Positions 7,375 through 64,000 of a stretch of 64,000 nucleotides of DNA are shown piece after piece. The notes below the pieces were generated by a model that worked only from the letters and a program-made list of their open reading frames with translations, searched no databases and was not told where the DNA came from. Position 1 is the first letter of the stretch, and each line of letters begins with the position of its first letter. Made by a program: the position numbers and the translations under genes. This DNA is from Pagrus major (taxonomy: Eukaryota; Chordata; Actinopteri; Spariformes; Sparidae): positions 13,154,197 through 13,218,196 of the forward strand of contig NC_133230.1 of NCBI RefSeq assembly GCF_040436345.1, in the 5' to 3' direction.

Positions 7375-20110
<12,736 letters not shown>

Positions 20111-20378
20111 TCTGTATAACAGCTACGAGTTGAGAGATTTCTATGAAAATCTGAAAGAGCAGTCGTCTCCTTTTCCTCGTCTGTGCAGATTACACAGCAA
20201 AAGTTTGAGATGGGTGTCGCAGCTTGTTGTCGTCACCGGAAAAAGCTCTTGCGTGCATTCAACGCGACTCGGGCGGGCAATTTGAGCGGACTGCCGTTGT
20301 CGTGTTGTGATAACTTCTGTGTCGACTCTGAAGTAAATCCCCAAAATAATCGGGTTATTTCTCCGGGAAGCGGTCGGT
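20111..20378. promoter_or_regulatory. Bidirectional psmb2/cdca5 promoter region
   Basis: The two start codons face away from each other with 268 bases between them. The segment contains an ETS-type ACCGGAA at 20235-20241 and a GGGCGGGCAATTTGAG string at 20271-20286. The latter pairs a GC-box or E2F-like core with a TTTGAG that is only near the CHR consensus. No TATA box is evident. The 5' ends of the transcripts are not determined. Confidence 0.6.
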
Positions 20379-21176
20379 ATGAACGAAGGGGTGTCTGACA
20401 ACATAATGGCGGATTCTTGTAACCAGGACGGCTCGCAGCGACGGCGGTCAGCGCGGTTGACTTCTCCTCCTCAAGCTAATGTTAAAACTGGCAACAAAAT
20501 GGCGGCGGCCTCTGTTGCTGTTAAACGCTCCATCACTGTGAGGAAAATAGCACCCAGAAAAACTGTAGCACCCTCGGAGCACAACAAGGAGAACACGCCG
20601 AGGCGGTCGGGGTCAGAAGGCAGCCAGAAGAAGCCGAAGGTCTCCACCCCTGGTCCCGTCCCGGGCCGCGGAGGCTCCTCCTCGGCTAAGCAGCAGCAGA
20701 AGAAGAAGGCCACTATGCTCTCACCGATCCTCCCCTCGACACCTCCGCCGCCTCCTCTTCCTCGGCAGCCGGCAGTGGATCCAAAGGACGCGGTGTGGTC
20801 CCAGAAAGTGCGCCGGTCCTACAGCAGGCTCAGCGACAGATCCCTCAACAGCCCCGACTCCAGAGACAACTTGTTCGGCTTTGACAAGCTGAACACCCCC
20901 GAGGTGGGCCGGAGGGGCGGGCGGCCCAAGACAGCTCTGGAGGTCTCCGGATCCTTGTCTGGTCTGAACTCATTCACGACTCTGCTCGAGGCAGAGGACG
21001 GCGGTTCGGCAGCTTTGCCCGAGCCGGACACAAACATCCCTGGAGTGGCTGTGGTGAAGGAGAAGAGGAGGAGGAGGAAGGTCCAGCAGATAGATGACAC
21101 AGAGGTGGACGCGATGGCCGCCAAGATGAACGCTGAGTTTGACGAGGCTGAGGTGTTTGAGTTGGTGGTGGAGTGA
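20379..21176 (+). CDS. cdca5: Sororin (cell division cycle associated 5), intronless
   Basis: One uninterrupted frame of 265 residues; human sororin has 252. Family marks in order: KEN box at residues 70-72 (HNKENTP), Ser/Thr-Pro sites including PSTPPP near 119-124, KVRRSYSRL at 143-151, FGF motif at 166-168, INIPGV-like LPxI region near 219-222, a basic stretch at 229-234, and the conserved C-terminal sororin domain ending AAKMNAEFDEAEVFELVVE. Sororin binds PDS5 on acetylated cohesin, opposes WAPL to keep sister chromatids together in S/G2, and is destroyed by APC/C through its KEN box. A second in-frame ATG at 20406 has a strong context (A at -3, G at +4) and could be used. The human gene has several introns, so this single exon is unusual. 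It is shared-promoter neighbour to psmb2. Confidence 0.96.
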   Translation: MNEGVSDNIMADSCNQDGSQRRRSARLTSPPQANVKTGNKMAAASVAVKRSITVRKIAPRKTVAPSEHNKENTPRRSGSEGSQKKPKVSTPGPVPGRGGSSSAKQQQKKKATMLSPILPSTPPPPPLPRQPAVDPKDAVWSQKVRRSYSRLSDRSLNSPDSRDNLFGFDKLNTPEVGRRGGRPKTALEVSGSLSGLNSFTTLLEAEDGGSAALPEPDTNIPGVAVVKEKRRRRKVQQIDDTEVDAMAAKMNAEFDEAEVFELVVE

Positions 21177-21970
21177 ATGTGGTGATTTACAGACATTAAA
21201 AGACTGAAGGGACTCTCTTACAGCATGTTGTTTTTGTCACTGACAGGCTGAAACACACTGACTCTGAGAGGACAACACTTATATGTGTGCTTTAAACTCA
21301 ACACGTTCAAGTTTTTGTATAATTTCAGCTCTAAATATTGTACATTTTGATCTTTTGAGTTTTATATGTGTTGTTGTGCATTTAAATGCTCTTAAAGTGG
21401 TTGTTCAGGTCATTATGTGATGGCATAGCAGCATAATATCACATTTGTTTTGATTATGACCAGTAGTTGGTTGAGTAAAACCTAAAGCATGTTCTTTATT
21501 TTGTTTTTTTAATGAAACATTCATACAGATTTTGTTTCCTGTGATCATTTACCTTTATATTTGTGATTTTAAACGTCCAACAGTCTTGCCAAAAGTGTAT
21601 TTTGTAAGTTTGTTGTTCAATGACGCGACACAGTTAATTATGGCTCGTTCTCACATGTATAAACTGGTTTGTAAAATTTGAACCATTATTTGCAGGAATG
21701 GTCGGATCTGAGAGCTATAATGGGATTATTTTTTTTCTATTGGGTGAAATTTACTGGACAGAATTGGTATTTTGTTTTTCATCATTGTTCATAATATTTG
21801 AATCAAAAACAACAGATGTGGGCAGCAGTTCAGAGGTTTATAACCACACTTAAATAATGTTTTATGTCCACATTTAATTGACACAAAATTTCAGAATAAC
21901 ACTGTAAGACAGTATCTACAAAAAAAGTCACAACACAGTTTGTTTAATAAAAATTCGGACAGAACGACAC
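21177..21970 (+). other. cdca5 3' UTR (inferred)
   Basis: No frame follows the TGA. ATTAAA at 21195-21200 is close to the stop and AATAAA at 21946-21951 is distal. Either could end the transcript. The stretch is AT-rich with no other feature. Confidence 0.45.
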
Positions 21971-22032
21971 GTGTTGTCAGTGATTATTTAAGTAATGTCA
22001 CTTTGAATGAAAGCACTATGTGTACATTTTAG

Positions 22033-22234
22033 TGCATTTAGCAGACGCTTTTGTCCAAAGCAACTTACAGTAATTCATACGCTGATGGCGGTGGCTGCCA
22101 TGCAAGGTGCCGACCAGCACATCAGGAGCAGTTTGGGGTTCAGTATCTTGCCCAAGGACACTTCGACATGCAGACCAGGAGAATCGAACCAGTGACCTTC
22201 CGATAACAAGACGCTGGCTCTACCCCTGAGCACA
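22033..22234 (-). mobile_element. tRNA-derived SINE
   Basis: Read on the minus strand it starts with an A-box-like GGGGTAGAGCCAGCGTCTTG and has a B-box-like GGTTCGATT about 30 bases later, the two parts of a tRNA-type RNA polymerase III promoter. A body with GTCCTTGGGCAAGATACTGA follows, and it ends with AAGCGTCTGCTAAATGCA. This layout is typical of very abundant fish SINEs. Confidence 0.8.
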
Positions 22235-23401
22235 GGGGTTCCTAAACATTTGCAGTCCTTAAAATCTGACGTAGACTTTGTAAAAAAAGAAGCACAACAC
22301 AGACAATTATCTGCTCAATCTGCAGCAACATTACCATCTGAGTGGAAGGTAGATCTTGTTTAAAGAGTTGTGTTTGGTGTGATTACGCCACGACACACCA
22401 TAGAAAACAATGCCTTAAATAAGGGTACAAATCATAAACGTAACTAATGATGGATGAATGTACTGTCACACTTGATAGATCATCAATTTTGTTATGATAA
22501 TTCCCAGTTATTATAACTGATGTGCAGCCAAATCAGCTGGGTTCCTCTTACATAACAGTTTATTTTCAGACTGTGCATTTTTGGTTCCTAAAATGAAACA
22601 AGTAACAGAATTAACATTCCTAAACTGAGGATGATTTATTAAAGGTAAGCAACGTGAAATCATGATGCATCCCGCATCCATTAATGTACCTATTCACCAC
22701 GAGTCATGCGATAGTTAAGCATTACTTAAGCATATGATTTGCACCCTTATTGAAGTGTTACATAATCAGGCCAAAAAGCATTCTGAGCTGTAAAATGTGA
22801 CTGCTGGGGAATGACAACATGTGTTTGTGATAATGTTATCCTGCACAGGTCTTAATAAGGTAGCCAGACATGTTGGCTAACAACACATTCCTATACACAG
22901 CACCGGTCTCTGGTGACTATGATGAGGCAGACTGAATGAGTGAGTGAGTGGGCGATCTGTCTGGATTTAATGAGAATGGTGGACAGGTAAACGCTCTCCT
23001 CCAGAGTCTCTTAACGGTGTAAGTGGATGTGTTGCATAATTTGCTCTAACAAGGGAGGGGGGGGGATGTTATCAGCCCTCATCCCTGCCTCTGACTGTGC
23101 AGACTCAGATAAACTGTCTGTTTGGCTTCAGATGACAGAGACTTTTAATGCGTTTTGCAGCTGACATACAGACGACCTGAATAATTGATCGGGAAAATAA
23201 ATACAGATGCTTCTATTGAGGGCACAAGAGGTCAATGAAACATTTGATGAATATGAAAAAGTTGTTAATCATGTGCTTTGGCCCGCCAGATCTCAACCCT
23301 CAGTTGAACTTACGGGAGACTTTGAACTAATGTGTGAGACAGCACTCCCAGCCACCAGCATCAAAGTGTCAAATGAGGCCAAATTCCTCTTGAAGATGGT
23401 G

Positions 23402-24340
23402 TTAAAGGATAGGTTCACCCAAAAATTACAATTATTATCATTATCTGCTGTTAGTTTTGTAGTCCGCACAACAATTCTGCAGCTTCACAGCAAAACAACG
23501 TCGCAGCGTTCTCCTAAACAACTGAAGTAGATGGAGACTTGTTTAAAAAATGTCAATAAAACAACCCAAATAAACTGAAAATGGCTCCATACAGCTCATC
23601 CAAGTTGATTTGAAAGATGTTATTTACACCCTCGATGCGCGGTGGCACTCCAGCCCGGTCGCCAGGATATAATGTTAGCAGGTAACGTTTCACATCAGGA
23701 GGCGGAGGGGATGGTGGTGGCCTTAGTACAAACCAACAAGGCTACAGAATGGCCGACTGCAATATGAGTCACACCGGTGCATATCTGTAAGGACACCTGT
23801 GGACATTTCCAGCTGTTTTTGTGGCGACCAAAATCAGCTATTTTTTGCGGGAAGTTGGACCATCTTCATCCATTATCGTGGTGACCGAAACAGCTATTTC
23901 AAGCCAAAACAAGTGTTTTTTGTGCATTAACCTTAACTTAATCAGAAAATTCTGTGGTTCAGCAGACACTTACCTTACACTTACACTCGCGATTGGGTTG
24001 CGAGCTTGTGCACCCACTACAGATAGGTTGCGTGCTAATGCTTTAAGCTTAGCAGCTGATATATTTGGTGATAAAAGGATGTTAGTAATGTCTTTTCAAG
24101 TCAGTTTGGGATCTCTCGGCTTCTGCTGTTGACGTGGATTATGCTGGGCAAGCTGTGTGGAGCCATTTAATGTTTTTTTTTTTTAGTAGTTCAGTTGTTT
24201 AGGAGAACGCTGCAACGCTGTTTTGCTGTGAAACTCCAGAAATGTTTTGTTGACTACAAAACTTCACCTGACTCTCCATCCGCATGAGGTTGAGGAGATA
24301 ATGACTACATTTTGTAGTTTTGGGTGAACTGTTCCTTTAA
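23402..24340. mobile_element. Non-autonomous DNA transposon, 0.94 kb
   Basis: The left end TTAAAGGATAGGTTCACCCA and the right end (complement TTAAAGGAACAGTTCACCCA) form terminal inverted repeats. Sub-terminal arms also pair: TTGCAGCGTTCTCCTAAACA-type text near 23510 and its complement near 24200. No transposase is encoded. Confidence 0.75.
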
Positions 24341-24457
24341 CACACGTTTGTGATATTCCACAAAGTAAGATGTAGAAATTTGGGATTTTATTCTCTTAAT
24401 AACAGAAAAAGAGTCACAGCTGAGGCAAAGATTTGGGACACTTGTTTCATGCTGGTG

Positions 24458-24715
24458 TTAAAGGGGCACTACGTAGTTTTGGTGAAGACATTTAAACTCA
24501 GAATTTTAATATTTACAATATAAATGCGGCAATAAGACAAACTAGAAATAGTTATTTTTTCGTTTTCTTTATTTTGGTGGAAGCTAGAGAGGTGGCAGGG
24601 TCCGCCAAATATAAACAAAGTACAACAGGATGAAACTGTGTTGTCCTTTAAGGTCAGTTTGTTTATTCAGTCATGAAAACAAAGAGCGTTTGTTTACTAC
24701 ATAGTGCAGCTTTAA
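24458..24715. mobile_element. MITE, 258 bp, copy 1
   Basis: Terminal inverted repeats: TTAAAGGGGCACTACGTAGT at the left; the right end complement is TTAAAGCTGCACTATGTAGT. Internal text such as AAACTCAG, TAATATTTACAATAT and TACAAACAAAGTA-like sequence is shared with the element at 34476-34732. Confidence 0.75.
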
Positions 24716-25689: not shown

Positions 25690-26050
25690 ATGAGAGGGAG
25701 GGGAGGGAGGGAGGGAGAGGGGAGGAGAGGGGTTGGTTTGAGGGGAGAAGAGAGCAATTGGGTGAGGGAACATGTGTGTGTGTGTGTGAGAGAGAGAGAG
25801 AAAGACCAATGGGGACATGATCCAGAGGCTTTGACAGCACAGAGGAAGCTCCCTTCTCTGCTGGATGCTCTTTCCTCTCTCTTCTTTTTCTTCTCTCTCT
25901 ACATACACCCACCCTCCCTCCCTCCCTCCCCCCTCAACCAACTTCCTCATCTCTCCTCTCACCCACCCTTCCCTTCCCTTCCCTCACCCCCTCCCTCCAA
26001 ACCTACCCCTCCTCCACGCCCCACTTCCCCCCGTTATACTTCCTCCCTTT
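25690..26050. repeat. Purine tract followed by pyrimidine tract
   Basis: 25690-25735 is almost pure G/A with five or more G-runs of three to four. 25905-26050 is almost pure C/T. The two strands are complementary in character, so both G-quadruplex and hairpin or triplex structures are possible. Confidence 0.7.
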
Positions 26051-37346: not shown

Positions 37347-38414
37347 TTATGATTGGCTGACGGCAGCAGCAGGCGCGGCGTTGGCCACGGCGTTGGCGGC
37401 GCCCATGCGCAGCAGTTCCTTCCTTTGCGTGAGGATGATGTCGAAGCTGGACTGCAGGCGGTTCTGCTGCTCCTGGATGCGGCTCTGCAGGGTGCGGACC
37501 CAGCGGATAAGCGCCAGGCGGCGGTACATGGTCAGCTGCACCTGGTGCTTCTCCATCTCCTGGGCCTTGAAGCGCTCGCGGTCTCGCAGCGTCCACACGG
37601 GGTCCATCAGCTCTGTCAGGTCGGCGTCGGCGTCGGAGTCTGAGGAGCCTTCTTCTTCGTCTTGCTCTTCTGCTCCTTCCTCCAGGAGGTTTCCCAGGTT
37701 TCTTCCTTTCTGCGGCTTGCGACTGAAGCTTCTCTGTCGTACAGCTGGATCTCGGTTGCTGTTTCCGTCTTCCTGGTGGTTGGATTTGGGTTCCCCGACT
37801 CCGATGCGGTCCCAGCCTCCCATGAGCATCCCTTCGCCCGCGCTGTCCAGGTTGAGAGAGGACATGCTGCCACCGGACTGGTAGCTGAACTCAGAATCGG
37901 ATTCGCTGTCTCCCCATTCGTCATCGTCTTCCATGAGGCTGCTTTTCCTCCTCTGCTGCTCCTTCTTCAGTCTCTGCTTCTCCTCATTCTGGCTCATCAT
38001 CACCCTCCTCACCTCTTCCTCCATCCGACCTTCCTCTGCTCCGTCAGGAGGCACTCGGCCGTAACCATCATCCCCGCACTCTATTTCAGGCAGGGGCTCC
38101 AGAGTGCTCCAGCAGGGCAGACGGGAGCGTGGAGACAGAAGCCCTGAGCCGTGGTGATACCCAGAAGACGGCGAGGAGTTCGGAGGGTCACGACCCAGCG
38201 GACCTAAGTTGCGTGGACGCACCTGGTTTCGGTTCTCATCTCCTCCTCCTCCTCCCCGATTGCCTGTGAAGTCATCGTCACCTTTGCCAGGCAGGAAGTT
38301 GAAGTTGCCATCTTTGTCACCCTTCCTGTTTCTCAGCGAGGAGGAGGAGCCGTTGTTGGAGCGTCCTTGCCCTCCATAGGCCGAGTTCAAAGGCTGGTCC
38401 TGATGGTGAAGCAT
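37347..38414 (-). CDS. c1orf216: C1orf216 homologue (UPF0500 family)
   Basis: A single coding exon of 355 residues with ATG at 38414; the in-frame codon just upstream is GTG, not ATG. A splice acceptor (TTTCAG) ends 22 bases before the ATG, so the leader is in another exon. The C-terminal third matches human C1orf216: ERFKAQEMEKHQVQLTMYRR, LALIRWVRTL, RLQSSFDIILTQRKELLRMG. The N-terminal two thirds are Ser/Gly/Asn-rich and acidic, with no known domain, and look disordered. It is longer than the human protein (about 230 residues). The conserved part probably forms helices or a coiled coil. The family has no established function, and I propose none. Its place between psmb2 and clspn, on the same strand as both, matches human gene order and supports orthology. 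Confidence 0.93.
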   Translation of the reverse strand: MLHHQDQPLNSAYGGQGRSNNGSSSSLRNRKGDKDGNFNFLPGKGDDDFTGNRGGGGGDENRNQVRPRNLGPLGRDPPNSSPSSGYHHGSGLLSPRSRLPCWSTLEPLPEIECGDDGYGRVPPDGAEEGRMEEEVRRVMMSQNEEKQRLKKEQQRRKSSLMEDDDEWGDSESDSEFSYQSGGSMSSLNLDSAGEGMLMGGWDRIGVGEPKSNHQEDGNSNRDPAVRQRSFSRKPQKGRNLGNLLEEGAEEQDEEEGSSDSDADADLTELMDPVWTLRDRERFKAQEMEKHQVQLTMYRRLALIRWVRTLQSRIQEQQNRLQSSFDIILTQRKELLRMGAANAVANAAPAAAVSQS

Positions 38415-38436
38415 CACTGACCTCGACTGAGACTCA

Positions 38437-47778: not shown

Positions 47779-50700
47779 TCAGTGGCCGAGGAAGTTGAAG
47801 ATGCTCCTCTGGGGGCCTTTAGTCTGTCCAGCAGGTGTGTTCTCCCTGCAGACCCTCTTTGCTGCTGGGTTCACTGCTCCCACCGGCCCCCTCTTCTTCA
47901 TCATCTGAGGGGCAAAACACATCCAAAGTTTAAAGACACATGTGCAAAACTATACAAACTTGATGAGCACTGATAAAATGACTACAGTGGTGAATCCTGT
48001 GATAAAACAAACTGCCCAGCAACAGTCATTCTTGCATTTATACTTCATATTATCTAACAGGAGCAGTGGGCTTTGGCTCCACCTAGTGTCATAAATGTAG
48101 AAGACATCAGAATCAATAATGTCACCCATTACCCTCACATGACTATCACACTGAACAAGATCTTTGGAAAATATTTTGTTTGTGTGCTTATTTTAGCACA
48201 GAGATCAGAGAAGAGACACGACCAGAGAAGATTGGGAAACCAAAACATATGACTGATCATTTTCAACTCGCGCATTAGCTTCTAGAAATATGAAAACAGT
48301 TTTAAAGCATGTCCTCTGACCTAACACGACATTTAGAGATAATCTGTCTGGTAGACTGAAGAGATGAGAAGGTAAATTTTAGAGTTAAGTCGGAGGCGTC
48401 AGCAGCACCAGGAGTCTACTGAGGTCAGTGCAGTTAAATTATTGTTATAAACTCATGGGTGTAACATGCAGGCTGTGATTTGCAACATAACATCATTTCC
48501 CTCTCTACTCCCTATGAAACATTTATCTAATCAAAACAAACGTGACACTGCCAACATTTGCAGGCTTCATACACCTCTTTAAGAGTCAACTTCAAGCACT
48601 TTCAAGGTACCTAAAACAAAGAAATTCAAGACTCTCAAAGCCTTTATCATCACGTCTAAACTGATACAACAAAGGAATAGCAGAAAATAAAGTTTACAGA
48701 ATTCCTTTATCAGGACAGCAATCCATGTATATTGTCACTTTATTTATTTATTTACCGGCTGTTTTATTAACTTTGATTGTATGTTTTGATAGCAGGAGAC
48801 CAAGAAATATGCCACCGGGATCATTTCATTTCAAATATTTAGATTTGTGGTTTGCTTGAGAGCTTTCCAAGATGAAACAACAGATTATTTTAAGAGATAG
48901 GGTATTTTTGAAGGAGAATATTCAAATTTAGGGATGCACATTACGGTCAACAGTAATATATTGTGATTAATTTGACAGATATTGCAACTATGATGTGATT
49001 CATGATGAGCGGGAATGATCATTTTTGCATCAGAATTTCCATTTTCATTAAAAAAACAAAAAACAAAACAACAATCTTGACTTTTTTGTCAAATATTCTG
49101 ACAGCTTCTGTGATTTCGACTACATCTCAATTAATCGTGCAGCCTTATTCAAATTCGAGCACAGCTGTATTCCTAACCTCGAAAACGTAACGATCAGTGT
49201 GAACACTCGTTAGCTGGTTACCATTTAAGTATGTGGTGTGAGAGGGCCGCTCCAGCTGAAAGACCCAAAGCTGGCCATGAGTAGTTGAAATGTTTTTTTT
49301 TAAAGCCATATTGCCATTGAAAAGACTGTACACATGAGGAGGAACCTCTGGAGACTTCTTTTACATTGCATTCGTACTTCTGTAAAGTTTTGGCAGACTT
49401 TTCTTTGTCTGGCATTTCTTTGTTTTGTTTGACATTATTCTTTTATGTTCTGTACCCGTTTCTATTGTCTTTTGGTGTTGTGTTATTGGCTGTTATGTGG
49501 ACAGAATAACAATAAATTCTACCTCGACCTTTCTATGGTGAGATAACATCAATGTTTTAAATGAGATAATAATTTACCAAGCCCCTTGGTGTATTAAAGA
49601 CATTTTGTATATTCAGCTTTAAACATCTGAGGGGCAAGATGGGATTTTATGGTTTGATTGTGATGCTTTGAAGCTCGTTCTGCGTCTCTTCAGTGAGTCT
49701 CTTTTCCCTCACCTGTTTCTGGGGAGCATCTGAGGTCGAGTTGTCCTTCTCAGGAGACAGAGTCTGAAACAGGAATCCTCGGCTGTTTCTGGGCGCCAGA
49801 GGATTCCCCTCTGAGATTGACGCCAGCTTCTGGAGGACGGAGTGAGGCTGACTCAGTAGCGAGCCTCTTCTCACCTGGCAGAGATAAATAAAACATAAGT
49901 CTCAGACTGACCTTGTTCACTTCACAGAGAATATGTAATGAACTTTGCTGGTTAAATATTTAAGAGGCAAGTGGCCAAAATCTCACTCTGCACCATTTTG
50001 GATCATTTTTAGTGAGGGGGTTTGGTTTTACAGAAGTCAGTACCAAGCTGAAAACTGATCTTTATACTCCACTGGCCAGTCTAGCTGGCAACTAAAGCTT
50101 TACACTTGATGGCTGCCTGTCTGAAAAAATGGCTGATAAAGTAAACAAACCTCCTAATTATAACATTTTTCTGTTAGTTATGTTACAACAAAAATATGTA
50201 TTCCAAAAGAAACCAAGTTAAAATTATACTGAAAAAAAGTCTTAATATTTTATCAGTTGTTTTTGTCCTAAAACGTGACCAGTGTTAGTAAGCCGTCTCA
50301 AACAGGACTGAAGCTTAAATTGGTGTGATAAAATGAGAAATCCCTGATGATACCAAACAAAATGAAACAGAATAATAATAAGTCAGAAAAGCAAATGAAA
50401 CCAAGATTCATGATTTGTAACTATTAGGGGTGGCAGTGACGTACCTGTAAGGGCTGTGAAGGTTTCTGGAAGGGGTTGAGAGCTGCTGAGGTCTTCTCTG
50501 GTTGTGGTGCCACAGGAGGTTCTGGTGTGGAAAAGTTGGGAAGTTACAGAACAGACAAAAAGAAAAGATGCTCCTCTAAAAATTCATAGTTAGCCGATTT
50601 AAAGCAAAAATGAAAAAAATCTCTTTGTTTCAAGTCTATTCCTAAATAAGAACAAAAATTCCTGCACACTGCCATCTTCGCTTGCATCAGGAAAATTTGG

Positions 50701-53700
50701 TGACAACATTTTCATCCTTAATCAGGTCGTGTTTTGCTCGGTGGTTCTGTACATCGGTCATCCTGAAATGTTTTTATCTCTACACACTGATGAAAAGCAC
50801 TTTGAAACTTTGTTTTGAAAGGTAAATGAGTTCAAGTGGTTAAAATGCCCTTTAAAATCTGACTAACTTCCTGCTGTAGCGCCATGTTTATCATTTGGAT
50901 CTGAGGATGTGAAGTGGCTGCTAACAAAAAGTCATTAATATTACATGTCGCCACTCTGTTTTAGTCACATTTCTTTTTCCGGGAACACACGAATGCCACA
51001 ACTGTCGGGAAACAAACGCTTGTCATTTAGCAGTGACAGTGTTGGCAGCACTTTCTGCTCAGTGTCCGGGTTAGTTTAGTTTAGTTTGCTGGGACACATG
51101 CCAGTGTTTTGTTGCAATCACAGTGTTTGAGTGTGAGTGTGTGTGTCTCTGTTTTATCTCCAAAGCTCTGTTGCACATCAGGTGGAGTTACCAACGGCCT
51201 TCTCAACTCTCAGTGCTGAGCAGAACAAGACGCACAGAGAAACTAAGACTCTAAGATTAGACTCTGCTAAAACTTTGTGAACTGTTTATCACACCTTCAC
51301 ATTCATCTCTTCCAACTTCTAAAAGCTCAAATATTCCAGATTTAGACACAACAGCAATGTTCCCAAACTTTCAAATGACCTGCCTGGTGATTGAGTTTTC
51401 TTTCCACATGTTTGTTTGCTTTATAAAACTATTTTTATAACTGGACAAAAACACGTCGGACTTCTTGTGAGGCCTCGTATCAAACAGACCTTTTCTCTGC
51501 AGAGTCTTGGCAGTCAGTTTCTTGGCCAGCTTCATGAAATGACTGTCTTCCTCTCCAATCTTCTCATCATCTGCATCCAAATCTTCCCCTTTCTTGGCGC
51601 TCTGTTCAGACTGAGAAGACACAGAGAAAGGAATGAAGACAAAATAACAACACCCCCCACCGCAGAGGAGAGGGGATGACTCAACCACACAGGTCTTGAA
51701 TGTACACACATGTAGCTTTTATTATTCTCTCTTAATCCTGCACGGCGTTTTGAAATCAACAAAGTCAATGCTGCAAATAGACTTTCATTAATGGCTCTTT
51801 ACTATTAGCTTGTGTGTAGGTCTCTTAATATTACCTGTTCTCTGAGCCACTGTTCCCTCTCCAGTCTCTCCTTCCTCCTCTGGACCTCAGACTGGTCCAC
51901 GTCATCTTCCTCCTCATCTTCCTCGCCCTCTGCTCCCGTCCCGTCCATGTTGAAACCATCATCTGGAGGAAGAAGTGAGAGAAACTCAGTGGTTTGTTGG
52001 AAGTTTAGTAAGGTTTGTAGAATATAAAACAAGATCTGATGTACTCAAAGCTCAAAACATACACTTACCATCCATTTTTCCCCCCACACTTTTAGATTGT
52101 TTCTCTCTTTAGATTATTTTTTAAGATTTATTTCATATTGAACACCAATTCCAGATACTTTAAGCGTACAGCCTGAGATTATTTTGTGATAAACACTGTT
52201 TTTCCCTCCATTTTTCTTTTTATCTCTTTTCCTTCTCTTAATTAATTACCGGTATATGTTTTTTCTTTCTTTCTGTAAACTCACCCATATTTTTCCAACG
52301 GAAGCGTCGAGCTCGTCCCGGACCGTCAGAGTGCAGGTCGCCATCAGCGAGATAACGCTCCTGGTAGAGCCTCAGACGACGCTTGTCATCATCCATTATC
52401 TGCTTCCTGTAGGAACATTTCATCTCTCGGTTTAAACCACTTAATTTCAGATATAAGATATCCAAGTTGAATTTTAACTACAGGATATTCCTGTTATGAT
52501 TAGAGCAACGCTGGAGGAAACTCTCTGATGAGTATTAATGCAGTTTGAGCTTGAGACAAACCTAAAGACCAGCTGAACCCTGCAGTGGATAAACAACACT
52601 TCAAAACCATTTCCAATAACTTGACCAGATTTTTTAAAAGTCTTTGACAGTCATAAGGGGCATAAACCTTACAACTTAGTAAAGACACTTGACAACACGC
52701 TTAACGACTGGTCAGTAAATACTAGACTTTACTGGTTATATAGGTCTCCAACTGTCAAGTGCGTTACTGAAGGAAGGCACCAGATGGAATGAGATCCATT
52801 ACTCACATGTGGATCTTGTTGACCTGGTCCTGCAGCTCTTCATCGGAGGGAAGCTCTTCAAGAAGCTCCTCTTCCTCGTATTCGCTCTCTCCGTCACCGT
52901 CCTCATCGTCGCTGCCCAGGTCACTGCCTGACAGCTCAGCCTCCGAGTCCAAGTAGTCAGTCAGACGCCTGTGAACACAACGAAGGAAACCGTTAAAAAC
53001 CCTGTGCTACAGCGTGGATTATCTGATGGAAATTACGAATCCATTTCCTTTTTCCTACAAAGTTATACTTGATTCTACACTTACATTTTCTTCTTCTTCT
53101 TCTTCTTAACCCGATGGGATGCGAACACTCCCTGCATCTCCTCCTCCTCTATATCATCGTCGTCCTCCTCACCAGCTTCAGCCTCGTCCCCATCTTCATC
53201 CTGTCCATCATCGTCCTCCTCCTAAACACATAACTCATCTGTCACTTGCATTATAAAAGACACATTAAGTGGAACTTTAATGGAGACAGAGGTGTGTGTT
53301 GATCTTACCTGTTCACTATGACTTTCGACATCTGACAGGAGCCGGAACTCGCAGTCCTCTTCCTCCTCCTGCTCTTCCTCCTCTGGCTTCTTTTTACTTT
53401 ATACAGAGAAAGCACTATGAGAATCTTGCAATTTCATACAAAATATTTCAATTATTATGACTTCAACACGTTATCAAAAGGAAACTGCTGGAGATATATA
53501 ACATAATCTAAGTTCTGTGTACTGTACCTGTCTTGTACTGGTGAAGCTGAACGAGCAGAACCTAAAAATGGCAGCAAAAGAAACAAATGTAAATATTGTG
53601 TAACTGGAGGGAAAATGATTAAAAAGATGCTCATAACACTGTCAAACCTCTAAATCAAAATGTTGTGAGACAATCATATGTCCTTGAGCTTCCTCATAGT

Positions 53701-56700
53701 TAACAGGCTCCTATTGACAATAGAGCTGCAACGATTTGTCAATCAGTTAGTTGCTCTATTAACCTTTTCATCAAGTAAAAAATCTTCTTAAATGTGAGGA
53801 TTTGCTGCTTTTCTTTGTCATTTATGACAGTAAATAAAGAGTCTGTGAGTTTTGGACCGCTGATTGGACAGAATAAGCAATCTAAAGACATTACATTGGG
53901 CTCTGGGAAATTGCGATGAGCACTTCTCACAATATTGACTTTTTATACACTAAACTCTTAATTGATTAATCATGTAAATAATCATCAGAATAATTGAAAA
54001 TGAAAATAATTGTTAGTTGCAGGCCTACATAGAAAATAAGGGAGGTAGCAGACTCCTTTACCTGGACTTGGAAATTTCCCTGAGCACAGCCCCAGCAGCT
54101 GATCCATGGTATTATCAGATTCTTCATCCTCTCCTCTCTCCTTACTCTTCTCTGTTTCCATCTGTTCCTCTCCGGCCTGTGTTGGTGGAAACGCTCCCGA
54201 GCACAACCCGAGCAGCTCATCTTCCTGTGTAGATCCAAGACCTTTGGTCTGACTCGAGCCGCTCTCCGCTGTCCCGAAAACACCCGAACACAACCCCATC
54301 AGCTCCCCCATGTTGGCGTCCATTGCGTTTTCATCCAGGCTGTCCAGGATCAACTGTCTCTTGTGAGAGCGAGGTGCACCAGGGCGCGGCCCCACATTAA
54401 GGAAGCCATCTGCGTCGAGTAACTGAGAATGGGTGTCATCTTCCAGCGAGAAGCGACCTTGGGAGTCTCCTCCAAGACCGGGACCAGAAGCTGCTCCACC
54501 CAGAGGCCCCGAATCTGCTCCTGGAGATGGAGGTGCATACAAGTCTTGGGAGTCCTCGACAGGGAGGCAGAGAGAGGGCTCGGAGAGTTTTCCTGAACTC
54601 TGAAGGGAAAAGAGATGAAAAATTAAACCAGTTCATTTTGAAGCAAACAGTAATAAAAGGCTGAAAGAATTATTTTTATCCCACCTTGGAGGCAGAGCCG
54701 AGGAAGCTGGGCCTGAAGAGGCAGGGAGACGGGGAGCGGAAAATGGAGGAGTTGGGGACGTTTCTTCCTGCGGAGCGCTGATGACTCACAGGCTGGTAGG
54801 AGGTTATCATAGATCCCGCAAGCTCGAAGCTGCTGTTGTGGCTGTTATCCTTCACCAGGGACAAAGAGTCGTCCTCTTCTAGAGACGAGAGGGATTACAG
54901 AGTTTGGAAAAAAAAAAAAACTTACAAACTTGGCAAGTGTCCTTCCAAATACAGCACATTTAAGTGGAGCAGGCATTGTCGTCACGTAGTCGATATACAT
55001 TAGTCTTTTGAGTGTAAAAAGTTTGGATAAACTGAGTGGGATCTTTCGCTGTACTCACCCATTTTATTGCTGCTGTCCTGTCCAGAAGGACCAGACCTTC
55101 TTACACCATCACTGAAAAGGAGAACAGTGCATGTCAACCTTTAATACCTTTATAGTTGGACAAAGAAGTAATTTCAAGACATTTATTTGGGCTCTGTGAA
55201 ATTGTGACAAGCATTTTCACATTTCATAGACTAAACTATTAATTCAGAAAATAATCAGCAGATTATTGATAATGAAATGTTCATTAGTTGCTTAAAAACT
55301 CAAGTCACAATTACCCTGTGCGAGAGCAGGAGTTGCCCGGGAACAGCAAGAGTGTGCCGTCGGTGCTAACTGGGTCTGGAGTGGGCGAGGGTCTGTTCAG
55401 TGCAACAGGAGAAGGGCTCCTGACACTCTGGGCCACACTGCCTTCCTCCTCCTCCTCCTCACCATCATCACCTCCCAGTAACTCATCCACACCCTGGTAA
55501 AAGGGAAGATTGTGTTTGATGTGAATACACCGAGATAAATGTGAAGACGGTTGTTCCAAAGCAGCAAGAAACAAACAATCTGACCTCTTCTTCCTCAGAA
55601 TCTGTCATATCTTCCTCCTCCTCTTCCTCCTCCCCACATTCTTCATTGTCAAGGCGATTCAGCTCGGCCTTGCGTGCCCTCTCCTCCTGTCTCCGCTGGG
55701 CCATGGCGAGCTGCAGGCGCTGCTTCAGAGTCAGCAGCTTCTCTCCTATGAAAAGATGAAGTTAGTCATGTCAGGAAGTCAACAATCAAAATTCTCTTAA
55801 TCGCTGCCCTCTGCATGCACGTCATGTCTATGCATACCTGGTTTGGTTACCACAGGCTCCTCTGCTCCCTCTTTAACAGTGACAGTGACTGACTCAGTGT
55901 GCAGCTCTTCCTGACCAGACGGCGTGCTGTCTTTACGGATGATGTTAACCTGCATTGTTCGCTCTCCCTGAGGACGTGTGGGCGCCTTGACATGACGCAG
56001 GAAGCGGTTCTTCAGGGCCTCCAGACCTAGTATAAGAAGAGAGGTAAATAAAAGATCTAAATGCAATAGTAGATGGGTTTATTCTGACTCATAACACATT
56101 CTTTCTCTTAATCTCTTGTTCTAAAACTTCTAACACTCACCAGGGTTGAGCTCTGGAGGCTCAAGCTGAATAAAGGCTCCATCATCTGGGCACAATTTAA
56201 CGACAGGTGGGGGGTCCAGTCCAAGCTTTTTCAGCATGGCAAATTTGTCCTTCTTGGGTTTAGTGTGTTGCTGTGATGAAGGCTCTGCTGCAGCTGGATC
56301 AGTGCTCCCACACTGAGTGGCTAAAGGCTCCTCCACAGCCTCAGATTTGGCCTCTTCTTGCAGAGCGTCAGAGTCAGACATTACTGCAGTCTTGCTTTGT
56401 TCTAAGGATGCAGGAGAGGTTTCTTCTCCAGAGTCAGATCTCGACACTGCATCTGTTGGGAGCGACTCCTGCAGACTCTCAGAGAGGTAAAGCATCGGTC
56501 CAGATTCCTGGTCGGGATCTTGGCTCTCAGTGGCTTCTCGGCCCTGGTCGAGTCTCTCTTGCTGCGGGGATGAGGTGGCGGCAGGGTGAGGTATAGGCTG
56601 GATCTGAGTGGACGACAGATCCAGAGAGGGAGAAGAGTCCTGCTCTGTAGATGGCTGCACAGGCTCACTGGGTGGATCGGTGGGAGGTGTCGGTTTCTCT

Positions 56701-59700
56701 AACATCACGGCTGAATACTTGGTGGACCTGACGAGAGATTTTCATTCATTAGTTTATGTCAGCCTTGACACTTCTGATTGTGTGTTTGACAGAAATAAAT
56801 GTAAAACTTTCAAAAATTGTTTGAAAACAGATGTTAACTTCTGGCTAGCTTTTATAGCTTTTTCTATTTTGTTTGTCTTTACTTCAGCAGTGCCATGGCA
56901 GAACCCTCTGGCCGGACTCTCTTCTTGAAGAACTGGTCGATGGTCTTCGGCTCAGGGATGTGGTACGGCAGACCAAGTTCAGACTCTACAAAAGTGTCAA
57001 AGATGAAGACATAAGATTTATTTTTAAAGGTCTGAACCACACTTTTCAAGAGAAGGAGTTACGATAAAGAGATTAAAAGCGTTTCTTGTCTACTGACCTC
57101 TGACCAGCCTCTGGGACTCACTGTGGAGCTGCTTCATTGCCTCTTTGCTGGCGCGTGCAGCTTTCCTCTCCTGCAAACATCACACACATTGAGCATAAAA
57201 CCACTTTTTGGTATTTCATATAAATTTTACAGCATTTAGAATAAATTTAAGAATTCTGACACTGCGTACCACACGCTGGGGCTTCTCTGCTGCCTCTTCA
57301 TCCTCCTCCTCGTCCTCATCTTCCCCATTCAGGAGAGGATCCTGCAGAAATATTTAACCCGGATTACAGAAAGAACTGTCTAGAAAACATCTGCAAAACA
57401 CTGTGCCACTCTTTTCACCACAACATTTCACTAACATTTCAATACCTTTAACAAATTCTGAGACAAGGAATACAGAGCTGTTTTGATTCAAGGTTAGAAA
57501 TTCAAATAAATAATATAAGTTACAAAACATTTCAGAAATATTGAATAAGACATTTCATCTTTTTTTCCACCTTATGTTTTTTCATCCTCTGCTTGACAGC
57601 AGCTCTGATGGCCTCCAGAGACTCTTCTTCCTCCTCGTCCTCATCGCCCAGACCAGTGTCAAACAGGTCTGTGTCGCCCAGTGGACACCCACTGTCATTC
57701 AGAGCCCGAGCAGGAGGCGTGTTCTGTGGAAATGGTACAAAGTTGTGTTCAACTATACAATAAAATCCACATAAAGGATTCAAAATCTATAAAAATCAAT
57801 CATTTCCTTGATGTAACACTGTAAAAAAAGAGTTATAAGAAGAAAAAATAGCTTCAATAACCTCGTTCGTTTCAGAGAACCGATCTTTCTTCTTCTTCAG
57901 TTTTTCCACAGCTTTGCTACGCTTCTCCTTTTTCTCCCGATGCCTCTGACTCTTCTCCCTTTTCTTCTGCTCCTTTGTCGATTCCTTCTCCTTCCTCACA
58001 TCCTCCTGTTGCTCCTCCATTTCTCCATGTTCCTCCTGTTCAGGCTCACTGTCTTCGCTGTCAATGGGAGCGTGGCGTATTCTCTTACTTTTCTGCGCTC
58101 CTTTCTCTTTCCTCTCACTCTTTTCTTCGGCCTCTCCGGTCTCCATCTCATCACCGCTGGAAGCGGATAAGACAAGAGCTTCGGCCATGTGAACACTGCT
58201 CTCTGCAGCTGCCTCCTCTTCCTCGCTGTCACTGTCTCGGATGGCGTTACGATGTGGCTTTCTGTGAACTGTGATGTCTTCATCGTCATCAGAATCTGAA
58301 CACACAAATAACACTTTAGAAAGTCTTGTTGTTGCGGTTTATCCTTTGTATTTTGCTTGTGTTTTACTTTTGTTTGCTCCAGTATTAGCCAATGATGGAT
58401 GTAACTTCAGTCTCCCTTTGCCCCTTTTTTAATGCACTTGTAATGATTCTTCAAAATAACTGTTGTTCTGGAGCAAAAGTCTAGTTATCTTTAATCTGTG
58501 AGCACATGCAGTTAAGTCCCTGAGACACCTTTTTTGTGTTTTACGTAGCATTTATTTTTTCACACAGGAACGACACACAGATTTTCCTTTAAGTGAGTAT
58601 TGAGGACTGTGTGCTGCCATTCAAACAGTAATGTGATTGTTGCATTCATGGTAAGTATTGTGATTAAGTGTCCACTAAATGTCTAAACTCTAAATTTACA
58701 CACTCTCATTTACACAGCCAAAGTGTCTCAGTCCTGCATTATCATCTATTGTTGTGTTACTTCACCTGGAAGCTCTTCTCTATTGTTGGCTGTCTCTGTG
58801 ACCATCTCCTCTGCTGGAGAGCCCATCCCGCTGTCTGAATCACTCTCTGCTGCAGTTTGGGGCACAGCTGGGAGCCCCTCCGCCTGGGAACAATAACAAA
58901 AAACAGAACTTACACATTATGAAGTTTATTTTCTATAATATTGAGGCACCGCAGTCCGTTTTACTGGGGATAAAACACACTGGAGGATCCGTGTTCAAAG
59001 TTATACAGCCTTAATGTAAGGCACACACTGCTGCCTAATATTAGATTGCAGGGCTACTTATTGTGCTAAATGTGATTTAACCATATTTTCATTAAATCCA
59101 AATTTTCTAGGTATTGATTCATGTTTAAAGTGGCAGATTTAGTCCAACTCACTGCTGCTATTTTTCCAGGATACCACAATTAAAGCTTGTGTCTGTATGT
59201 GTCAGAAAATACACGTAGGAAAAAGGTAATTTCTTTGCAAAGTTATCTTGAAAAGTTAAGGTTTAAATATGTGACTTTGTGCAGGAACATGGCTGTTAAA
59301 TTACATCAGTGGCGCCTTGCAATAAACCAAACAATGAGTTAGCGAGCGACAACACTTCCTTTGCTGTGTTTGCACTTAACTTAGCTTCATGTAACACACA
59401 AAGACACAAGTGAGTCATCCCCAACATCATAATATGTTTATGTATAAGATGTTAACGGTGGTTAACAAAACAAAATGCCAAACTAACATCGGTTAATCGA
59501 CGTGAGCAGGCCAAGGCACAACCACCATTACAGCTGGGCGAGCTAGCTAACCGGCTAACGCTAACAATATCTGCAGCTAGCTTAGCACATTTAATCGGTT
59601 TTGAATACTTTTAATCAATTCAGTCTTTCCCCATAACTTATAACTAACGGGGGCTTCATTGACAGCGTGATACCTTCGTGTTAGATGGACTTTCGTGTCA

Positions 59701-61995: not shown

Positions 61996-62014
61996 ATGGA
62001 AGCGCTCGGACCCG
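61996..62014 (+). CDS. ago4: Argonaute 4, first coding exon (partial gene)
   Basis: ATGGAAGCGCTCGGACCCG followed by a consensus donor GTAAGA encodes MEALGPG, the exact start of vertebrate AGO4 and unlike AGO1 or AGO3. Argonautes bind small RNAs in RISC and silence mRNAs in the cytoplasm. The N, PAZ, MID and PIWI exons lie beyond base 64000; I found no second coding exon in the window. The call rests on seven residues, the splice donor, the CpG-rich promoter and its place divergent from clspn, as in human. A short first exon before a long intron is typical of this gene. Confidence 0.85.
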
Positions 62015-64000
62015 GTAAGACATTTAAAAAAAAAAAAAGGCAGCAGCAGCGAGCGGCAGCGGGGAGAGCGAGCCGTGTGTGGGGCGCGTGTGCGCCAATG
62101 CGACGCTTCACTGGGGGCCGCGGCTTCCAGCGAGGCCTCCACGTCCTGACGGGAAAACAAACCGAGGCCCAGCCCGTGTGTGTGTGTTTGCGTGCGTGTG
62201 TAAGTGTATTTACACCGAGCGGGAAGCCACGTTTTGCGACTCTACGCGGACGGTCGGGGTTTTAATCGGGTCTCCGGTCATGTCTGCGCGGTTTTATTTA
62301 TCGGAAGCACGCACAGCCTCGTCGTGTCGGGGCTGGCATTGTGTGAGTGGGGATTTAACTAGGACCGTCCTTCCTCCTTCCTTCCTTCCGCGTCGTGGTG
62401 TGTTTACGTTGATGTTTGTTCGCGACGTGTTTTTTTTTTTCTTTCTCGTTTTAAACCGCATTACTTCGAGCTCGTTTCGACGCCGACATCGCACATTTTC
62501 TGTCGAAATTTGACAAAACATCGCACCTGTGTCAAAGCTGAGGCACCTTTTTTTTTTTTTTTTAAATTTGTACCATCGCCATCAGGAACAGCGCGTCTCC
62601 TCGGGGCTGCCCCTCGTCCAAGAATGACAGGCGATGGGTGGGAAAAAAACAACAAAATAAACGCCGATAAAAACACATGTTAGTGGCGTTTTAACGAGCG
62701 GTACGTGCGTGTTTTGTGGCTGTTTTTCATGCGCGCGCGCGCGTGTGTGTGTGTGTGAGGCTTCCGCAGGGATGAATGGCGCTTTTTATCGATCAGATTT
62801 TTTTGCGGGCCAGCTTCATATTATCCATCTCCTATATGATAACAAAGGCACTTATATTGCAGCGATGTGGTGATTAAAGCACGCGGAGGGGGGGAGTCCG
62901 CCACACACCTGTACACCCACTGATACGATGCCTTTGTGTTGTTACAGCACGCAAAAAATGTGTGTTTACCTCGCTTTTCCTGCATTATATTTGTGAAATG
63001 CGCCTTTACACACACGTGTAATTGAATGCAGCTTGCAGAGGAATCGGTGAAGCAGTTGTTTTTTGTGTGTGTGTGTTGAGTCCACACACACATGCTCTAG
63101 AAAACAAAGGTGGTGACATTAGGAAAAACGTAGATGCATTATTTAAGGGGGGCATTTGCTCAGCTGCAGTATTAAAAATAAATGTCGAGCATATGCATGA
63201 TGATGTGTGTGAGTCCAGGGGAATGATTGGAGATGACAATATTGTACAACCATCCACAGGTGTGTGTGTGTATGAGCCAAGACTGCCTTATTGTCACACT
63301 TAATCAGTGTAAACCTTGATGACAGCAGCTGCTATGTGGCCAATTTTACCTGATACTACCTGGTTTTCACGAATGCTTTTAATAAATGTGGATGCGGTTT
63401 TGAGATTGCAGACTTCGATAATGATAAATAGGGTGGTTTTTGTGTCGTCCGGTACCAATGTCAAGGCCTTTTACGCTCATAATTGGCCTGCAGTAGCATG
63501 CATCTTCATGAGAGTCTTGTGCAACAGCTGTATTAAGTGATTTCTAGCTGACGAACAAGATCCTGCAGTTTCAGCTCTTCAGTCAGTAGAGTAGCATCAG
63601 GAAACTGTTGTTGTATTGCTTTTTTAAAACCTGATAGAGAAACTATACATACAATCCAATCCTGTATAAGTCTTCACATTGCAATTCTTAATTTAAAAAG
63701 TGCATTTGACAGCTTCCTATGGTTAGGGGATTTCTTTAGACACACACACGCACACACACATTGTTTATGACTTCATTGTGGCTGGAAATCTTAAAGCGGA
63801 GCCCCCCGAAGGTTGTGATGAAAGCGGAGGGTGTTCACAAAGAAGCTTGTTTGAGTGGTTGTTTTCATTCTTTATCAATTCATGAGGTGCGACTGTTGAA
63901 GTGGTGTTCAGATGCAAACAGTTGGCACTAGAGCCCAACCAATAGTCAAGTTTTGGGGCCGATTTGAGGGAGTGAAAACTTCTGATATGGATATTGGCCG
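62015..64000 (+). other. ago4 intron 1 (continues past the window)
   Basis: CpG-rich to about 62500, then ordinary. It contains a (CG/TG)n run near 62730-62757, TG and CA runs near 63061-63090, and at about 63927 the start of a fish repeat (AGAGCCCAACCAATAGTCAA, then GATATGGATATTGGCCG). No exon recognised. Confidence 0.65.

What the first reader, a model, noticed from the sequence alone, without database searches (positions are those of the whole stretch)
20379..21176. Intronless cdca5 inserted into a conserved TFAP2E-PSMB2-CLSPN-AGO4 block
The window reproduces the human gene order except for cdca5, which in human is on another chromosome (11q13) and is multi-exonic. Here the full 265-codon sororin frame is one exon, fused head-to-head to psmb2. 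This suggests a retrocopy that captured the psmb2 promoter and may be the functional sororin in this lineage. No poly(A) remnant or target-site duplication was obvious, so the event would be old.
Basis: partly seen in the sequence, partly recalled or inferred. Interest (0 to 1): 0.72.

Follow-up and report, generated by a model that had tools for sequence, protein, structure and literature searches.

The report
Single-exon sororin gene beside psmb2
A fish-like genome carries a complete, intron-free copy of sororin, a protein that keeps sister chromosomes glued together, back-to-back with a proteasome gene; it is probably an old working retrocopy, and it could be a natural test of the link between RNA splicing and chromosome cohesion.

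Summary
The frame at 20379-21176 (+) is a complete 265-codon sororin (cdca5) in one exon. It matches both Pfam sororin models above their cut-offs and has KEN, YSR and FGF motifs. It lies divergently from psmb2, 268 bp between start codons, in an otherwise human-like AP-2, PSMB2, DUF4653, Claspin block. Human introns are numbered at least to 5. Zebrafish cdca5 lies on the p53 chromosome, while sfpq and hdac1, recalled as neighbours of PSMB2 in human, map to chromosome 19. A derived, old, functional retrocopy is the best reading but is not proven: neither this species' genome nor any other fish genome could be searched. 'Captured psmb2 promoter' needs changing: the spacer holds one CDE/CHR-like cell-cycle element, GGGCGG-N4-TTTGAG, in the cdca5 orientation, and human CDCA5 is a listed target of that pathway. 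Since failed sororin splicing is a main reason why spliceosome loss breaks cohesion in human cells, an intronless sororin predicts cohesion partly uncoupled from the spliceosome.

The parts
20379..21176 (+). cdca5 (sororin) coding sequence, single exon, 265 codons plus stop
20334..20336 (+). first in-frame stop upstream of the start codon
20586..20594 (+). KEN box (residues 70-72)
   Evidence: motif role from PMC11148194, passages
20688..21056 (+). Sororin_middle region (residues 104-226)
20820..20828 (+). YSR motif (residues 148-150), Pds5 binding
   Evidence: motif role
20874..20882 (+). FGF motif (residues 166-168), Pds5 binding
   Evidence: motif role
21102..21173 (+). Sororin C-terminal domain (residues 242-265)
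20111..20378 (.). 268-bp divergent spacer shared with psmb2; CpG o/e 1.16 and 1.26 in the two 200-bp bins (20101-20500) that cover it
20271..20286 (+). candidate CDE/CHR cell-cycle element GGGCGG-N4-TTTGAG in the cdca5 orientation
   Evidence: motif definitions
20024..20110 (-). psmb2 first coding exon
   Evidence: recalled query; no Pfam match for this 29-aa piece alone
7390..19458 (-). further psmb2 exons found (7390-7479, 8551-8730, and matches between 19458 and 19102)
21195..21200 (+). possible poly(A) signal ATTAAA shortly after the stop codon (another, AATAAA, at 21946)

Best explanation
This is an old, functional retrocopy of cdca5. A spliced sororin mRNA was copied into the divergent side of the psmb2 CpG-rich promoter. 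The copy is transcribed to the right from the 268-bp spacer, and its expression is probably timed to the cell cycle by a CDE/CHR element bound by DREAM. It makes a full sororin that binds Pds5 through its YSR and FGF motifs, shields cohesin from Wapl after replication, and is degraded through its KEN box by APC/C-Cdh1. It may be this lineage's only sororin. Shown here: intact one-exon frame, family membership, motifs, divergent placement, the element's sequence. Inferred: retroposition as the route, expression, cell-cycle timing, and status as the sole copy.
For: Single-exon complete frame with both sororin domains and all three vertebrate motifs. At least five introns in human CDCA5, inferred from the named introns 1, 2 and 5. 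The neighbouring psmb2 and clspn match in several separate pieces, so the region has not lost introns in general. The OMIM genes listed for human 1p34.3 do not include CDCA5. Zebrafish cdca5 is on the p53 chromosome, whereas sfpq and hdac1 map to chromosome 19. One [GT]GGCGG-N4-CHR site in 64 kb, both strands, and it lies in this spacer; 7 of 20000 dinucleotide shuffles of the spacer have one. TTTGAG is a published CHR variant and CDCA5 is among 210 potential p53-p21-DREAM targets.
Against: No poly(A) tract and no target-site duplication found, so nothing positively marks retroposition. No second copy, no other fish and no RNA data could be examined. The gene list is incomplete (no C1orf216), so it is weak evidence for absence. 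The DUF4653 neighbour is also one long frame here. The element was seen by eye before it was tested, so its shuffle count is post hoc; with looser CDE forms 126 of 20000 shuffles have one. TTTGAG is not the optimal CHR, and changes in the outer bases cut LIN54 affinity strongly. GGGCGG is also a plain Sp1 box (recalled).
Confidence: 0.62

Rival explanations
1. The retrocopy exists beside a retained intron-bearing cdca5; the parent stays the main sororin and this copy has a special (for example germline or embryonic) role.
For: General knowledge: a retrocopy at first always coexists with its parent, and parents are commonly kept. No call bears on it directly; the sea-bass survey reports a multi-exon paralogue for 312 of 1585 single-exon genes, mixed in origin (PMC8207432, passages).
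Against: Nothing in the window speaks to it; neither the window's own sororin nor the recalled human one found another copy in the 64 kb. Retention of the mitotic motifs suggests the general role.
Confidence: 0.22
2. The gene moved or was always here by DNA-level rearrangement, and lost its introns in place (for example by recombination with a cDNA); the tetrapod location is not ancestral.
For: No poly(A) or duplication traces; human and zebrafish locations cannot be equated from the papers seen.
Against: It needs a move plus the loss of at least five introns while psmb2 and clspn keep theirs; retroposition does both in one step. The zebrafish location argues against psmb2 linkage being general in teleosts.
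Confidence: 0.12
3. A processed pseudogene, not used.
For: Retrocopies are often dead on arrival (general knowledge); no expression data here.
Against: 265 codons open although no trace of the insertion event was found, and KEN, YSR, FGF and C-terminal domain are present. A neutral copy that old would be expected to be broken.
Confidence: 0.04

Closest known systems
Human CDCA5 / sororin
   Same: C-terminal and middle sororin domains, KEN box, YSR and FGF motifs, basic stretch before the C-terminal domain, S/T-P sites (human letters recalled); listed among potential DREAM targets found through CHR sites.
   Different: Human gene is on another chromosome (11q13, recalled) and has introns numbered at least to 5; here one exon next to psmb2. 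The N-terminal half is only weakly similar, and the two KEN boxes do not fall in the same alignment columns.
Functional retrogenes of teleosts (zebrafish and sea-bass surveys; intronless teleost rhodopsin)
   Same: Single-exon functional copies of multi-exon genes (listing; passages); in zebrafish 198 of 440 intact retrogenes lie inside host genes.
   Different: Here the copy may be the only gene for an essential mitotic protein rather than an added paralogue. cdca5 does not occur in the main texts of the two surveys; their supplements were not open to me.
Engineered intronless sororin transgene used in human spliceosome-depletion rescues
   Same: Sororin protein from an unspliced message, which partly restores cohesion when splicing factors are lost.
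   Different: Laboratory construct; the gene here would be a natural equivalent.

Membership tests
Sororin (CDCA5) | C-terminal sororin domain | tested here: met
   PF25220 E 2.7e-9, profile positions 1-24 of 24
Sororin (CDCA5) | YSR and FGF motifs for Pds5 | tested here: met
   SYSR at residue 147, FGF at residue 166
Sororin (CDCA5) | KEN box for APC/C-Cdh1 | tested here: met
   KEN at residue 70; present, but not in the same alignment column as the recalled human KEN
Sororin (CDCA5) | antagonises Wapl, needed for cohesion | not testable with these tools
   needs cells
Retrogene (functional retrocopy) | no introns where the parent has them | tested here: met
   one open frame over the whole protein; human gene has introns 1, 2 and 5 named; exact intron positions not compared
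Retrogene (functional retrocopy) | new genomic location relative to the parent | tested here: inconclusive
   CDCA5 not in the OMIM-gene list for human 1p34.3 (an incomplete list), zebrafish cdca5 on the p53 chromosome; no parent seen in this genome
Retrogene (functional retrocopy) | poly(A) remnant and target-site duplication | tested here: not met
   none found; such traces decay, so this does not exclude an old event
Retrogene (functional retrocopy) | parent gene identified and tree consistent with RNA-level duplication | not tested
   own genome not answered; no fish collection offered
CDE/CHR (DREAM) promoter | CDE, four-base spacer, CHR variant near the start | tested here: met
   GGGCGG-GCAA-TTTGAG at 20271-20286; definitions; transcription start and binding not tested

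The most novel reading that the evidence does not exclude
In this fish lineage an intronless retrocopy has replaced the intron-bearing sororin gene entirely. That would free an essential, spliceosome-sensitive step of sister-chromatid cohesion from pre-mRNA splicing, and hook it to a divergent proteasome-gene promoter through a CDE/CHR element, so that loss of splicing factors should not break cohesion through sororin there as it does in human cells.
Probability: 0.38. Interest if true: 0.62.

Novelty: new member of a known kind. Interest (0 to 1): 0.42.

Why it matters
In human cells, depletion of many splicing factors breaks sister-chromatid cohesion predominantly because sororin introns are retained, and an intronless sororin transgene partly rescues it (PMC7348712, passages; PMC6287947, passages). 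A vertebrate lineage whose native sororin has no introns would be a ready natural control: whatever cohesion defect remains after spliceosome loss there cannot come from sororin splicing. It would also be a case of an essential mitotic gene replaced by its own retrocopy.

Tried and rejected
Searching public collections for relatives of the protein gave none (viral contigs, 7 pattern matches, none confirmed; genome contigs, 57 pattern matches, none confirmed); these are viral and prokaryote collections. PDB search of the sororin frame gave one weak match, E 1.9, taken as chance. Rfam found one UnaL2 LINE tail at 22028-22081 on the minus strand. I considered it as a trace of the machinery that made the retrocopy and set this aside, because it is in the opposite orientation and lies about 850 bp beyond the stop codon. 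No tRNA gene by ARAGORN with the bacterial code. In the spacer the E2F consensus TTSSCGC, CCAAT and a TATA box were not found; one ETS-like CCGGAA (20236) and one TGACG (20235, minus) were. Codon position 3 of the ORF is 71% G+C, like the psmb2 (72%) and clspn (67%) pieces, so composition does not mark it as foreign. The seven direct-repeat families in 20000-23000 include none that joins the 5' spacer to the 3' flank.

One search was badly set (min_terms 2 let in 39,255 papers) and told nothing. In the lists that the other nine showed, by title, counts and start of abstract, I saw no paper on an intronless fish cdca5 or a cdca5-psmb2 neighbourhood: 20 of 211, 7 of 7, 3 of 3, 12 of 12, 7 of 8, 10 of 321, 10 of 11, 15 of 40, 17 of 17. 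So 25 of the 40 papers that hold both 'cdca5' and 'zebrafish' were not seen, and the library is open-licence only. Of the 15 papers opened I saw passages found by term, not whole texts.

Not pursued: structure prediction (probably a mostly disordered protein), and the second genome-contig scan.

Full report
What is there. The frame at 20379-21176 (+) is one uninterrupted 265-codon reading frame. Pfam places it in the sororin family twice over: Sororin_C at residues 242-265 (E 2.7e-9, profile positions 1-24 of 24) and Sororin_middle at residues 104-226 (E 9.3e-7), both above the curated cut-offs. Against the human protein as I recall it, the second half aligns well (tblastn residues 131-252, 37% identity, E 3e-15), best at the C terminus and around RRSYSRL. 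The N-terminal half is only weakly similar, and the two KEN boxes do not fall in the same columns of the alignment. KEN (residue 70), YSR (148) and FGF (166) are present, with seven S/T-P sites. The roles of the motifs are as given in PMC11148194 (passages). An in-frame stop lies upstream with 14 codons between it and the start, so the open frame begins here. An upstream exon spliced into those 42 bases cannot be excluded from sequence alone. In 2000 base shuffles of 20379-21400 the longest stop-free run reached 254 codons, against 265 observed.

Surroundings. psmb2 runs the other way from a start codon at 20110 (recalled query). Of four exons tested, two match the proteasome family and two short ones give no Pfam match. 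One matches PDB chains of proteasome subunit beta type-2 best. AP-2 pieces lie at 9-1695 on the plus strand (three of three match; PDB AP-2-beta and -alpha). A DUF4653 gene lies at 37347-38417 on the minus strand (C1orf216 by recall). Claspin pieces lie on the minus strand at 49701-57173 (recalled query), one of them confirmed by the PDB Claspin chain at E 2.3e-28. A seven-codon exon start followed by GTAAG at 61996-62019 fits AGO4 by recall only; the recalled AGO4 query itself gave no hit. A human 1p34.3 deletion paper lists the OMIM genes KIAA0319L, NCDN, TFAP2E, PSMB2, CLSPN, AGO4 and AGO1 in this region, without CDCA5 (PMC9689888, passages). That list also lacks C1orf216, so CDCA5's absence rests mainly on recall that it lies at 11q13.

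Introns and place. Human sororin introns are numbered at least to 5 (PMC7919097, passages). psmb2 and clspn in this window match in several separate pieces, so the lack of introns is not general here; the DUF4653 neighbour, however, is also one long frame. A zebrafish study used cdca5 and rabep1 as markers on the arm opposite p53 of the same chromosome (PMC9436123, passage). Zebrafish sfpq and hdac1, which I recall as mapping near PSMB2 in human, map to chromosome 19 (PMC5405110 and PMC8584950, passages). That zebrafish p53 is on chromosome 5, and psmb2 on 19, is recalled. If so, linkage to psmb2 is not general among teleosts, and the position here is derived. Retroposition explains intron loss and the move in one step. 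No poly(A) run was found near the gene (the one run of nine or more A or T in 19001-24500 is T12 at 24173), and no flanking duplication. So the event, if it happened, is old. That the frame is nevertheless intact speaks for selection.

Promoter. The two start codons are 268 bp apart, and the spacer is CpG-rich: observed/expected 1.16 and 1.26 in the two 200-bp bins that cover it, against 0.2-0.6 in 16 of the other 23 bins between 18501 and 23500 (the rest range from 0.13 to 0.93). In the cdca5 orientation, at positions -108 to -93 from the start codon, it holds GGGCGG-GCAA-TTTGAG. Published descriptions give GGGCGG and TGGCGG as common CDE motifs and a spacer of four bases (PMC5716687, passages). 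TTTGAG is among ten functional CHR variants, and CDCA5 among 210 potential p53-p21-DREAM targets (PMC4705690, passages). With all ten CHR variants and both strands allowed, this is the only such site in the 64 kb, and 7 of 20000 dinucleotide shuffles of the spacer contain one. With a looser set of CDE forms, 126 of 20000 do. I saw the site by eye first, so these numbers are post hoc. Against it: LIN54 binds TTYRAA best, and a change in an outer base weakens binding much, though the p107 promoter has TTTGAG beside a CDE (PMC4974476, passages). The likeliest reading is a shared CpG-rich promoter with a cell-cycle element serving the cdca5 side, rather than plain capture of a housekeeping promoter.

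How it would work. Sororin binds Pds5, keeps Wapl from opening cohesin, and is removed by APC/C-Cdh1 (established for vertebrate sororin; motifs). In human cells the loss of many splicing factors breaks cohesion predominantly through sororin intron retention, and an intronless sororin transgene partly restores it (PMC7348712; PMC6287947; passages). The first of these also says that the rescue is often incomplete, so other routes exist. A natural intronless sororin should be immune to the sororin route. This is a prediction, not a result.

Limits. No fish genome could be searched: the genome search on the window's own assembly did not complete in seven identical tries, and the viral and prokaryote collections scanned gave no relatives. 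Whether an intron-bearing cdca5 also exists in this species, and in which fishes the single-exon gene occurs, is therefore open.

Verdict. A real, intact, single-exon sororin gene in a divergent pair with psmb2, most likely an old functional retrogene. It is a new example of a known kind, with a clear and testable consequence for the splicing-cohesion link.

Noticed in passing
22028-22081 (-): UnaL2-type LINE 3' tail (Rfam RF00436, 57 bits against a gathering score of 55), about 850 bp after the cdca5 stop codon, in the opposite orientation.
   Followed up: partly
23399-24343: A roughly 0.95-kb fold-back element: inverted arms of 51, 77 and 29 nt at 76-88% complementarity, like a non-autonomous DNA transposon.
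   Followed up: no
   Followed up: partly
61996-62019 (+): Short first coding exon MEALGPG followed by GTAAG, consistent with AGO4 exon 1 by recall; the recalled AGO4 query found no further exon in the window.
   Followed up: partly
25691-25936: Pair of G- and C-rich inverted arms (25 nt, 88% complementary, 196 nt apart).
   Followed up: no
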